Notes under the pieces: model-generated
What the model saw: only the letters and a program-made list of their open reading frames with translations
Told to the model about the DNA's origin: nothing
Databases searched by the model: none
DNA from: [Synechococcus] sp. NIES-970
Lineage (GTDB): Bacteria; Cyanobacteriota; Cyanobacteriia; Cyanobacteriales; MRBY01
Assembly (NCBI GenBank): GCA_002356215.1
Contig: AP017959.1
Span: forward strand, 1,054,001-1,118,000
Reading direction: 5' to 3'
DNA: 64,000 bases
Part shown: in pieces, positions 2,933-9,061 of the stretch
Position numbering within the stretch: position 1 is the stretch's first letter
How the letters are laid out: each line of letters opens with the position of its first letter
Program-made: the position numbers and the translations under genes

Positions 2933-3661
2933 CTATTCATCACCCGGTTCAAGGATCCGTTGAAACAAATACCCTGTACCTCTCGCTGTCAAAATCAATT
3001 CTGGATTGCTGGGGTCATCTTCTAGCTTTGCCCTCAGGCGGGAAATATGCACATCCACAACGCGGGTGTCCACATGGCGCTCAGGGGTATAGCCCCAAAC
3101 TTCCTGGAGGATTTCTGAGCGGGAAAAGGGCTCCCCAGAACGACTCACCAGTAATTCAAGCAAGCTAAATTCCATACCTGTGAGCCGAATGCGCTCATCA
3201 CCTTTGTATACTTGGCGCTTATTGGTATCAATGCGGATTGAACCCACATGGATCACTCCAGAGCTGGGAATGCCCGTCACTCCATTTTTTTCAACCCGGC
3301 GGAGCACCGAGCGAATTCTTGCTTCGAGCTCCTTCGGAGAAAAGGGTTTGACCACATAGTCATCGGCTCCGAGTTCCAAACCGGTAATTCGATCCGCTAC
3401 GTCCCCCAGGGCCGTTAACATGATAATGGGCACATCAGACTCTTTGCGGAGTTCTTGGCAGACGCCGTAGCCATCAAGCTTCGGCATCATTACGTCGAGC
3501 ACCACAAGGTCAGGGTCAGTTTCATCAAAGGTAGCCAGGGCTTCTTCGCCATCAGCGGCCGTCACAACCTCATAACCGATCATGGAGAGGCGGGTTTCGA
3601 GAATGCGTCGGATGCTGGCCTCGTCGTCAACGACTAGAATTCTTTCTTTATGATTTTCCAA
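2933..3661 (-). CDS. rpaB: Response regulator RpaB (OmpR family, Ycf27)
   Basis: RpaB is the essential cyanobacterial OmpR-type regulator (partner of histidine kinase Hik33/NblS) that binds HLR1 boxes and controls high-light genes and excitation transfer. Receiver domain about 1-120: acidic pair DD at 12-13, phosphoacceptor D56 in VVLDVMMP, conserved lysine in VVKPFSP. The C-terminal winged-helix carries RLTGMEFSLLELLV and RVVDVHISRLRAKLEDDP and ends in GTGYLF. At 242 residues it matches known RpaB almost throughout. The start codon is TTG (bases 3659-3661), chosen because it gives the family N-terminus MENHKE and no in-frame ATG exists before residue 27; an AGGAG lies about 11 bases upstream. 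Confidence 0.95.
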   Translation of the reverse strand: MENHKERILVVDDEASIRRILETRLSMIGYEVVTAADGEEALATFDETDPDLVVLDVMMPKLDGYGVCQELRKESDVPIIMLTALGDVADRITGLELGADDYVVKPFSPKELEARIRSVLRRVEKNGVTGIPSSGVIHVGSIRIDTNKRQVYKGDERIRLTGMEFSLLELLVSRSGEPFSRSEILQEVWGYTPERHVDTRVVDVHISRLRAKLEDDPSNPELILTARGTGYLFQRILEPGDE

Positions 3662-6801: not shown

Positions 6802-7749
6802 CTAGCGACCTGTCAAAACAACTCGACCGGCCAAAACGATCGCCGCCGGATCTTCTTTACTCGGACGAAAAGCCCCAATACCGAGGCAATGATTTGCCAG
6901 ATCATAAATGGCAAGGGGGGCTTCCAGGGGCTCTGCCAGATCAGGGTCCCAGGCAATTTTTTGGCCATAGCTCCACTGTTCCACCTGGGTCGCTGTTAAA
7001 ACCAATCGGGGTAAATGGGCCAGAATTTGATCGGGTGGGAGAAATTTGAATGATCCCGCTTCTCGCTGGGCCGCAATCTCTTCAAGGGTTACACTTTCTG
7101 CCAAGGCAAAACCACCGCTCAATGTCCGGGTTAACCCAGATAGGGTGGCCCCTACCCCTAATTTTTCGCCTAGGTCCCTGGCGATCGCCCGGATGTAGGT
7201 GCCTTCGCCGCAATGAATATCAAGGGTTAATTCTGGAAAATCCCCCGGTTGCCAAGCATGGATCTTCAGAGAACTAACCTCCACTTGGCGACTGGGTACA
7301 TCCACCGCAATGCCCTGGCGAGCTAACTCATACAGCCGCTTTCCATCCCGTTGAATCGCGCTAAAAGCAGGTGGAATTTGGGTAATCGTCCCTAAAAAAT
7401 TCGGTAAAACAGCTTCAATCTGCGTCAGAGTTAAAGCACCACAGGCTTGCTGGAAAATCACATCTCCTTCCAAATCATCTGTGGTTGTCTTGACCCCAAA
7501 GCGGACGATGCCCCGATAAGCCTTTTGTTTAGGTAAATATTGCAACAGACGAGTGGCTTTACTGACGGCGATCGGTAGTACCCCCGTCGCCATTGGATCT
7601 AGGGTTCCTCCATGGCCAATTTTTTTTGTCCCCAGGAGCCGCCGCATTTTTCCTACACAGTCATGGGATGTCCAACCAGCATCTTTATATAAATTGATAA
7701 ATCCCCAGTCATGATTCCCCTGGAGTTCTGGGGTGGGTTGCTGTTCCAA
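6802..7749 (-). CDS. truB: tRNA pseudouridine(55) synthase TruB
   Basis: TruB converts U55 in the T loop of nearly all tRNAs to pseudouridine. The catalytic motif GGTLDPMATGVLP lies at about residues 47-59, with D51 as the nucleophile. Further family blocks KAYRG, PPAFSAIQRDGKRLYELARQG and GTYIRAIARDLGE are present. The product has 315 residues. The start is a TTG at 7747-7749 with a strong GGAGG four bases upstream; no in-frame ATG occurs before the conserved region. It is convergent with the tRNA-Pro gene. Confidence 0.95.
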   Translation of the reverse strand: MEQQPTPELQGNHDWGFINLYKDAGWTSHDCVGKMRRLLGTKKIGHGGTLDPMATGVLPIAVSKATRLLQYLPKQKAYRGIVRFGVKTTTDDLEGDVIFQQACGALTLTQIEAVLPNFLGTITQIPPAFSAIQRDGKRLYELARQGIAVDVPSRQVEVSSLKIHAWQPGDFPELTLDIHCGEGTYIRAIARDLGEKLGVGATLSGLTRTLSGGFALAESVTLEEIAAQREAGSFKFLPPDQILAHLPRLVLTATQVEQWSYGQKIAWDPDLAEPLEAPLAIYDLANHCLGIGAFRPSKEDPAAIVLAGRVVLTGR

Positions 7750-7809
7750 ATGACCTCCTTTTTCGCCCTGTTAACGGCAACAAACCCTTGTATTTTGCCC
7801 TATCCTGGC

Positions 7810-7839
7810 TTGGCACGACAAAAAAGATCTTGCTATACT
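7810..7839 (+). promoter_or_regulatory. Sigma-70-type promoter of the RpaB-like regulator gene
   Basis: TTGGCA (7810-7815) and TATACT (7834-7839) are separated by 18 bases, close to the TTGACA/TATAAT consensus. The expected transcription start is near 7846, about 60 bases before the GTG start of the response regulator at 7908. Confidence 0.65.
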
Positions 7840-7840
7840 T

Positions 7841-7858
7841 CTTGTAACGAAATGTAAA
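7841..7858 (-). promoter_or_regulatory. HLR1-like RpaB binding site
   Basis: On the minus strand the sequence reads TTTACATTTCGTTACAAG: two direct 8-base units with a 2-base spacer. The published HLR1 pattern is (G/T)TTACA(T/A)(T/A)-NN-(G/T)TTACA(T/A)(T/A); unit 1 matches 8 of 8 and unit 2 matches 7 of 8. The site starts one base after the -10 hexamer and covers the likely transcription start, a place where binding would be expected to repress. Confidence 0.65.
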
Positions 7859-7907
7859 GAATCGTTTCTAAGAAACCCCACCGTTGCAACAAGGAGTTCC
7901 GTCCATC

Positions 7908-8654
7908 GTGGTAGACAATAAGGCAACCATCCTCGTGGTCGATGACGAAATCGCCGTACGTCGTATTTTACAAACCCGTCTATCCATGATTGGCTATGAA
8001 ATCATGACAGCTGCTGATGGCGATGAGGCCCTTGAGTTGTTTTGGCGCGAGGATCCAGACTTAGTCATCTTAGATGTGATGATGCCGAAGCGGGATGGCT
8101 ATTATGTGTGCCAAGAAATCCGCCGGGAATCAAATACGCCGATTATTATGCTGACAGCCCTCGGTGATGTGGCAGACCGGATTACGGGCCTCCGCTTTGG
8201 GGCGGATGATTACCTCATCAAGCCTTTTTCGCCTAAAGAGCTTGAAGTGCGGATCCAATGTATTCTCCGACGTACCCAAAAAACCATTGCCCCCACTGAG
8301 GAATCAGGCATTCTCCGGACGGCAAACCTGGTGATCGACACAAACCGCCGCAAGGTCACCCAAAATAACAAGCCCCTGCGCTTAACCCATATTGAGTTTA
8401 ATTTGCTGGAATTACTGGTGAATCAAGCGGGAGAACCCCTTAGCCGAACGGATATCCTCACGGCTATTTGGGGCTATGTGCCGCGTCGCCACAGTGATCT
8501 ACGGGTGGTGGATGTTCATGTGTCGCGTCTCCGGTCAAAAATCGAAAATGATCCGCGCCAGCCGGAATTTATCATCACGGAACGGGGTACAGGCTATCTT
8601 TTCCGAAAGTTACCGCTGGCGATCGCCTCTAATACTCCATCAATCGCCGTCTAG
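7908..8654 (+). CDS. OmpR-family response regulator, close paralogue of RpaB
   Basis: A receiver (residues 1-120, phosphoacceptor D56 in VILDVMMP, lysine in LIKPFSPKE) plus winged-helix output (RLTHIEFNLLELLV, RVVDVHVSRLRSKIENDP, GTGYLF). In residues 8-60 about three quarters of positions equal RpaB encoded 4 kb away. The GTG at 7908 is preferred over the TTG at 7884: AAGGAG at 7891-7896 precedes it, and it places seven residues before ILVVDDE exactly as in RpaB. The product has 248 residues. The C-terminal tail and linker diverge from RpaB. Its promoter carries an HLR1 box, so it may be under RpaB control. No cognate kinase is adjacent. Confidence 0.9.
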   Translation: MVDNKATILVVDDEIAVRRILQTRLSMIGYEIMTAADGDEALELFWREDPDLVILDVMMPKRDGYYVCQEIRRESNTPIIMLTALGDVADRITGLRFGADDYLIKPFSPKELEVRIQCILRRTQKTIAPTEESGILRTANLVIDTNRRKVTQNNKPLRLTHIEFNLLELLVNQAGEPLSRTDILTAIWGYVPRRHSDLRVVDVHVSRLRSKIENDPRQPEFIITERGTGYLFRKLPLAIASNTPSIAV

Positions 8655-8675
8655 TTTTCAGTTGTTTTAAAGATT

Positions 8676-9061
8676 AGGAGAGTCAGACATAAGCCGGGTT
8701 CTGTTCCCTTGCAACGCAAGAGGGCAGTTATCTATCTAGGATGGCTGTTACCAACCACCTCCAGCGGCACTCCAATAGCGGGATCGGAAAAAGACCAACC
8801 ATTATCCCTCCGTCCTTGCTCCCCACCGGGGTTTACCGAGCCAGCACCTCACGATACTGCTGGTGCGCTCTTACCGCACCTTTGCACCCTTACCAGATCG
8901 TCTAGGTGAACCTGTCGGATCTTCGGCGGTATGTTTCTGTGGCACTATCCTCACGCTCACGCGCACTGGGCGTTACCCAGCAAGTTTGGTCTTTCGGGAG
9001 CCCGGACTTTCCTCAGAGCTGATCTCAAGGTCAACCCTGCAACTGCCACGCTCACTCTCCT
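8676..9061 (-). ncRNA. rnpB: RNase P RNA (type A)
   Basis: The catalytic RNA of RNase P, which matures tRNA 5' ends. On the minus strand the 5' end AGGAGAGT (9054-9061) pairs perfectly over 8 bp with the 3' end at 8676-8683 (helix P1). The universal block GAGGAAAGTCCGGGCTCC is seen as its complement near 8996-9014, and the AGATAACTGCC block near 8728-8745 likewise. The 3' part contains ACAGAACCCGGCTTATG, as in cyanobacterial rnpB. Length is about 386 nt. It is convergent with the response regulator, 21 bases apart. No clear hairpin terminator follows. Confidence 0.93.

What the first reader, a model, noticed from the sequence alone, without database searches (positions are those of the whole stretch)
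7810..7910. RpaB (HLR1) box placed on the promoter of an RpaB paralogue
Seen: a good sigma-70 promoter (TTGGCA-N18-TATACT) followed immediately by TTTACATTTCGTTACAAG on the minus strand, 15 of 16 fixed positions of the published HLR1 pattern. Known: HLR1 is bound by RpaB, which is encoded 4.2 kb away. Inference: RpaB (or the paralogue itself) represses this gene, giving a cross- or auto-regulated pair of nearly identical regulators.
Basis: partly seen in the sequence, partly recalled or inferred. Interest (0 to 1): 0.62.

Follow-up and report, generated by a model that had tools for sequence, protein, structure and literature searches.

The report
RpaB-box on an RpaB-like gene's promoter
A probable binding site for the light-stress regulator RpaB sits on the start point of a related regulator gene in this cyanobacterium and is kept in close relatives, so RpaB probably switches that gene off in dim light, much like a circuit already described in another cyanobacterium.

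Summary
Confirmed: TTTACATTTCGTTACAAG (7841-7858, minus) matches 15 of 16 fixed HLR1 positions. It starts one base after the -10 of a TTGGCA-N18-TATACT promoter and ends 49 bases before the GTG of an OmpR-type regulator 64% identical to the window's RpaB. The genome has 29 such sites (at most 1 mismatch) against 5 for the reversed pattern; about 0.0003 are expected in the 158-bp intergenic stretch. All 6 held genus genomes keep the box. It is the most conserved 16-mer upstream, though its distance to the -10 varies by up to 3 bp. None of 24 other loci of the order that were read has a site with at most 1 mismatch within 300 bp, so a strong promoter box looks genus-specific; weaker, far-upstream HLR1-like stretches occur in some (7 of 23 at shuffle p up to 0.05). 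Best reading: RpaB represses the gene in low light and releases it in high light. A 2026 review credits this circuit (RpaB represses srrA) to Synechococcus elongatus PCC 7942. Whether this gene is that SrrA's orthologue is unresolved. Binding, start site and light response are untested. A likely new member of a known kind; modest interest.

The parts
7841..7858 (-). HLR1-type box TTTACATTTCGTTACAAG (15 of 16 fixed positions)
   Evidence: kept in 6 of 6 genus genomes
7810..7815 (+). -35 element TTGGCA (TTTGCA in three of the six genus genomes, same 18-bp spacer)
7834..7839 (+). -10 element TATACT, TG-extended, present in all six genus genomes
7846..7846 (+). presumed transcription start (7th base after the -10, an assumption); the box then spans about -5 to +13
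   Evidence: no transcript data available
7908..8654 (+). RpaB paralogue (SrrA-like OmpR-family response regulator), GTG start, AAGGAG at 7891-7896
   Evidence: clade
2933..3661 (-). rpaB (NCBIfam RpaB model 398.8 bits, cut-off 330); no site with 2 or fewer mismatches in the 300 bp upstream
6802..7749 (-). truB (tRNA pseudouridine synthase), divergent neighbour that shares the intergenic stretch holding the box; start codon as in the mechanical ORF list
   Evidence: NCBIfam TruB 244.6 bits, cut-off 151.45

Best explanation
The box is an RpaB operator. In low light, RpaB phosphorylated by the kinase NblS binds 7841-7858, over the start site, and blocks RNA polymerase at the TTGGCA/TATACT promoter. 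In high light RpaB loses phosphate and DNA affinity, and the paralogue is made. The paralogue, whose receiver is very like that of RpaB, then probably draws phosphate from the same kinase and damps or resets the RpaB response, as proposed for SrrA in S. elongatus. Shown here: the box, its place relative to the promoter elements, its conservation in the genus, and strict-motif enrichment in this genome, including sites near photosynthesis genes. Inferred: RpaB binding, direction of effect, light response, shared kinase.
For: Box and promoter geometry. 29 versus 5 sites genome-wide. For 15 of the 29 sites I profiled neighbouring proteins (chosen by eye); 9 of the 15 lie 12-291 bp from photosynthesis, pigment or quinone genes: psbD, psbB, psb35, psaC, an hli-type gene, phytoene desaturase, crtD, solanesyl diphosphate synthase, a CpeS-like gene. 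6 of 6 genus genomes keep the box at 0-1 mismatch; it is the most conserved upstream 16-mer, 15/18 against 44/155 invariant columns, although its distance to the -10 varies by up to 3 bp. Review passages place repressing HLR1 sites at -38 to +23 and list srrA as repressed by RpaB in PCC 7942.
Against: No binding, start-site or expression data were available. A site with at most 1 mismatch is absent from the 300 bp upstream in 24 of 24 other order loci read, although the strict motif exceeds its control in all 24 of those genomes, at least twofold in 15. In three genus genomes (G001, G004, G005) the genome-wide motif count hardly exceeds the control (24 v 21, 24 v 16, 23 v 18). Six related genomes are not six independent observations. 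The candidate srrA of S. elongatus shows only a weak upstream stretch (3 mismatches, shuffle p about 0.05), so the precedent is not shown here to use the same kind of box. Eight of the 29 strict sites overlap a mechanical ORF of 90 aa or more, so not every strict site need be an operator.
Confidence: 0.72

Rival explanations
1. The paralogue itself (alone or with RpaB) binds the box and represses its own gene, making a negative autoregulatory loop or a mutual switch.
For: The DNA-reading stretch differs from RpaB at 5 of 20 residues (DTRVVDVHISRLRAKLEDDP in RpaB, DLRVVDVHVSRLRSKIENDP here). None of the 5 is at a position that I recall as touching DNA in PhoB (recalled, no call), whereas the S. 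elongatus SrrA candidate changes H to Y and S to A there.
Against: No site near rpaB itself would close a two-way loop. Sequence cannot tell two factors with near-identical helices apart.
Confidence: 0.35
2. The box serves the divergent truB gene rather than the paralogue.
For: It lies in the shared intergenic stretch, and truB is the divergent neighbour in all six genus genomes.
Against: It abuts the -10 and presumed start of the paralogue promoter in all six; 19 other SrrA-like loci keep the divergent truB arrangement without such a box.
Confidence: 0.05
3. The box is a chance match carried along by shared descent.
For: Close relatives share flanks too; no such box in the other order loci read.
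Against: Expected about 0.0003 in the gap; conserved above flanks (Fisher p 8.6e-6); a perfect match in three relatives.
Confidence: 0.05

Closest known systems
RpaB repression of srrA in Synechococcus elongatus PCC 7942 (Lopez-Redondo et al. 2010, cited in review PMC13421787; I saw passages of the review only)
   Same: An OmpR-type RpaB homologue whose gene is reported to be repressed by RpaB; reported to compete with RpaB for NblS phosphate in vitro.
   Different: Here the box is strong and over the promoter; upstream of the candidate srrA in the genome taken as S. elongatus only a 3-mismatch stretch is seen. No truB neighbour there within the locus held, about 1.5 kb each side. Orthology neither shown nor rejected (p-AU 0.44).
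HLR1-repressed high-light genes (hli genes, rpoD3, nblA)
   Same: HLR1 box near or over the start site, read as low-light repression (passages).
   Different: The target here is a response regulator rather than an effector gene or sigma factor.

Membership tests
HLR1 / RpaB operator | 18-bp direct repeat KTTACAWW-N2-KTTACAWW | tested here: met
   15 of 16 fixed positions; 16 of 16 in three of the six genus genomes
HLR1 / RpaB operator | repressing place, overlapping -38 to +23 of the start site | tested here: inconclusive
   about -5 to +13 if the start is the 7th base after the -10; start not mapped
HLR1 / RpaB operator | bound by RpaB in vitro or in vivo | not testable with these tools
   needs gel shift, footprint or ChIP
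SrrA (S. elongatus PCC 7942) | RpaB homologue of the OmpR family, distinct from RpaB | tested here: met
   64% to RpaB; outside the RpaB clade
SrrA (S. elongatus PCC 7942) | common descent with S. elongatus SrrA | tested here: inconclusive
   the candidate shares AVRRIL, DYL, DLRVVDV, IIT with it; joined 81/0, placed with RpaB 99/97, unresolved (p-AU 0.44). The candidate is picked as the second-best hit in G177, not by a locus tag
SrrA (S. elongatus PCC 7942) | phosphorylated by NblS | not testable with these tools
   review statement for PCC 7942 only
SrrA (S. elongatus PCC 7942) | gene repressed by RpaB | not testable with these tools
   the box is suggestive only
RpaB (NCBIfam NF045944) | score above the curated cut-off | tested here: met
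   368 bits, cut-off 330; the S. elongatus SrrA candidate also passes, 386.3. The model does not separate such paralogues from RpaB
RpaB (NCBIfam NF045944) | falls in the RpaB clade of the trees | tested here: not met
   lies outside the RpaB clade (RpaB 92/84; 98/97; 88/95)

The most novel reading that the evidence does not exclude
Two cyanobacterial lineages put an RpaB paralogue under RpaB repression independently. In the window's genus, a truB-linked paralogue that is old in the order acquired a strong HLR1 box over its promoter, while relatives of it in other families lack such a box; the S. elongatus srrA circuit arose on a different copy. If the paralogue also binds the box, the result is a self-limiting reset of the high-light response. 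(Odds lowered from 0.40 to 0.35 on rechecking, because 7 of 23 non-genus upstream regions hold weaker HLR1-like stretches at shuffle p up to 0.05, which leaves an older, differently placed RpaB control open.)
Probability: 0.35. Interest if true: 0.5.

Novelty: new member of a known kind. Interest (0 to 1): 0.32.

Why it matters
It suggests that the RpaB-to-SrrA feedback, described in one model strain and reported absent from Synechocystis 6803, also operates in another cyanobacterial genus, and that its DNA wiring can differ between lineages that all keep the paralogue. It also flags that a database model names such paralogues RpaB, which could mislead regulon studies.

Tried and rejected
Chance match: disfavoured by the strict-pattern counts and genus conservation. 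truB as target: disfavoured. 'The gene is RpaA': rejected; the genome's RpaA-like gene is a separate hit (L003) that groups with the S. elongatus copy. Rooting the tree on RpaA or on regulators of other phyla gave conflicting places for the S. elongatus SrrA candidate, and on the RpaA root the SrrA-like rows of the order were not one clade, so I do not claim orthology. Five SrrA-profile rows were set aside or relabelled: L227, L212, L206 and L214 left out, L229 counted as RpaB. In f29-family loci I followed 2-mismatch sites 194-242 bp upstream (L218, L225, L228; shuffle p 0.00-0.03); with L208, L221, L226 and L227, 7 of 23 non-genus rows reach p up to 0.05 there, but only L225 (17.5) scores within the range of the genome's own sites (17.3-24.4), and all lie 158 bp or more from the gene start, so I could not interpret them. 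L222 could not be read and was examined (best 4 mismatches). The PDB search gave RpaA as best relative and nothing on HLR1 binding.

Full report
What was checked. The finding places an RpaB-type HLR1 box on the promoter of an RpaB paralogue. The sequence agrees: TTGGCA at 7810-7815, 18 bp, TATACT at 7834-7839, one base, then the 18-bp box on the minus strand from 7858 to 7841, TTTACATTTCGTTACAAG. It matches KTTACAWW-N2-KTTACAWW at 15 of 16 fixed positions. The consensus is as given in the review PMC13421787, of which I saw found passages only. The gene starts at GTG 7908 and ends at 8654.

Chance. Loose matching is uninformative: with up to 2 mismatches the genome has 118 matches against 99 for the pattern read backwards. 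With at most one mismatch it has 29 against 5. Five chance sites in 3.12 Mb give about 0.0003 in the 158-bp gap between truB and the paralogue, and about 0.1 in a 64-kb window. So the match is not surprising merely because a reader scanned 64 kb; its place on a promoter and its conservation carry the weight.

Conservation in the genus. Six genomes of the genus are held, the window's included; at E up to 1e-80 each has one RpaB and one paralogue, the latter 85-100% identical to the window's. All six have the box at 0 or 1 mismatch, on the same strand, 49-55 bases upstream of the GTG. In an alignment of the six upstream regions the box is the most conserved 16-mer: 15 of 18 columns invariant, against 44 of 155 others (Fisher p 8.6e-6). 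The -10 and a TTGGCA/TTTGCA -35 with an 18-bp spacer are kept too, while the gap from -10 to box is 1, 1, 1, 1, 2 and 4 bp. Caveat: these genomes are related, and two (G002, G003) are near-copies here. No site with 2 or fewer mismatches lies within 300 bp upstream of rpaB in the six.

Is HLR1 used in this genome? For 15 of the 29 strict sites I profiled neighbouring proteins, picked by eye. Nine lie 12-291 bp from photosynthesis, pigment or quinone genes: psbD, psbB, psb35, psaC, an hli-type protein, phytoene desaturase, crtD, solanesyl diphosphate synthase and a CpeS-like protein. The other six adjoin an MFS transporter and a molybdopterin oxidoreductase, an M50 peptidase, an ABC ATPase, a fatty-acid desaturase, an ABC1 kinase and a Rieske-type oxygenase. 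Fourteen sites were not profiled. Eight of the 29 overlap a mechanical ORF of 90 aa or more.

Beyond the genus. A profile of SrrA-like proteins was run on 388 order genomes. Loci were fetched for the best 30 places only (the cap), which is also about where the scores run into the RpaB background; SrrA-like genes below that are possible. Of the 24 loci outside the genus, 23 were read and one; none has a site with at most 1 mismatch within 300 bp. Five have a 2-mismatch site 158-297 bp upstream (L208, L218, L225, L226, L228). With a weight matrix made from 19 of this genome's sites, 7 of 23 non-genus rows reach shuffle p up to 0.05, more than the one or so expected, but only one (L225) scores within the range of those sites and none lies over the proximal promoter. 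One of the 24, L229, is an RpaB by its place in the trees. The strict motif exceeds its reversed control in all 24 of these genomes and at least twofold in 15, for example 42 v 14 in G090 and 30 v 6 in G106, but only 47 v 43 in G118; in the genus itself it hardly does so in G001 (24 v 21), G005 (23 v 18) and G004 (24 v 16).

Descent. The SrrA-like proteins of the order form one clade (99/97 each), with the window's gene next to the f25 family; on the distant RpaA root they did not hold together. In 25 of 28 SrrA-like loci examined, truB is the divergent upstream neighbour; one has it downstream and two show none in the 1.5 kb held. So this looks like an old, truB-linked copy whose strong promoter box is seen only in the window's genus. 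The S. elongatus SrrA candidate (second-best hit in G177, 61% to the window protein; genome recognised by identical KaiC) shares several diagnostic residues but has no truB neighbour in the stretch held. Its place in the tree depends on the outgroup, and holding it with the order clade is not rejected (p-AU 0.44). Its upstream region has a weak HLR1-like stretch, GTTACAGTTGATCACATA, 3 mismatches, shuffle p about 0.05.

What is known. [quoted passage not shown] The primary paper (Lopez-Redondo 2010) and the RpaB regulon paper (Riediger 2019) are not held. In the library searched, five papers hold both SYNPCC7002 and RpaB (listing only), and none of their titles concerns this promoter; nor do the titles listed for SrrA with RpaB, NblS or PCC 7002 (10 of 10, 20 of 39, 5 of 5). 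This does not show that nothing is in print.

Reading. Most likely the box is an RpaB operator that keeps the paralogue off in low light and lets it rise in high light, when it damps RpaB signalling. Box, geometry and genus-level conservation are shown; binding, sign and physiology are inferred. The recognition helix of the paralogue is close enough to that of RpaB that self-binding is a live possibility. The likeness of this genus to the PCC 7002 group (Picosynechococcus) is my recall; no call names the genus.

Noticed in passing
window 6802-8654; L203-L230, L056, L069: The SrrA-like regulator and truB are divergent neighbours in 25 of 28 SrrA-like loci across several families of the order.
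   Followed up: partly
L108, 211 bp upstream of the aligned rpaB start: In the genome taken as S. elongatus, rpaB itself has a 1-mismatch HLR1 site upstream; the window's rpaB has none with 2 or fewer mismatches in 300 bp.
   Followed up: no
L218, L225, L228, about 194-242 bp upstream: Three f29-family SrrA-like genes have 2-mismatch HLR1-like sites on the minus strand far upstream.
   Followed up: partly
window 7908-8651: NCBIfam's RpaB equivalog model accepts the paralogue (368 bits, cut-off 330) and the S. elongatus SrrA candidate (386.3), so both could be annotated as a second RpaB.
   Followed up: yes
window 8674-9059: RNase P RNA gene, minus strand, converges on the paralogue with a gap of about 19 bp; found beside it in G000, G002, G003 but not in the loci held for G001, G004, G005.
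   Followed up: no
G000 sites L021, L036, L233, L035: Strict HLR1 sites lie 12-58 bp from solanesyl diphosphate synthase, crtD, phytoene desaturase and an hli-type gene.
   Followed up: partly
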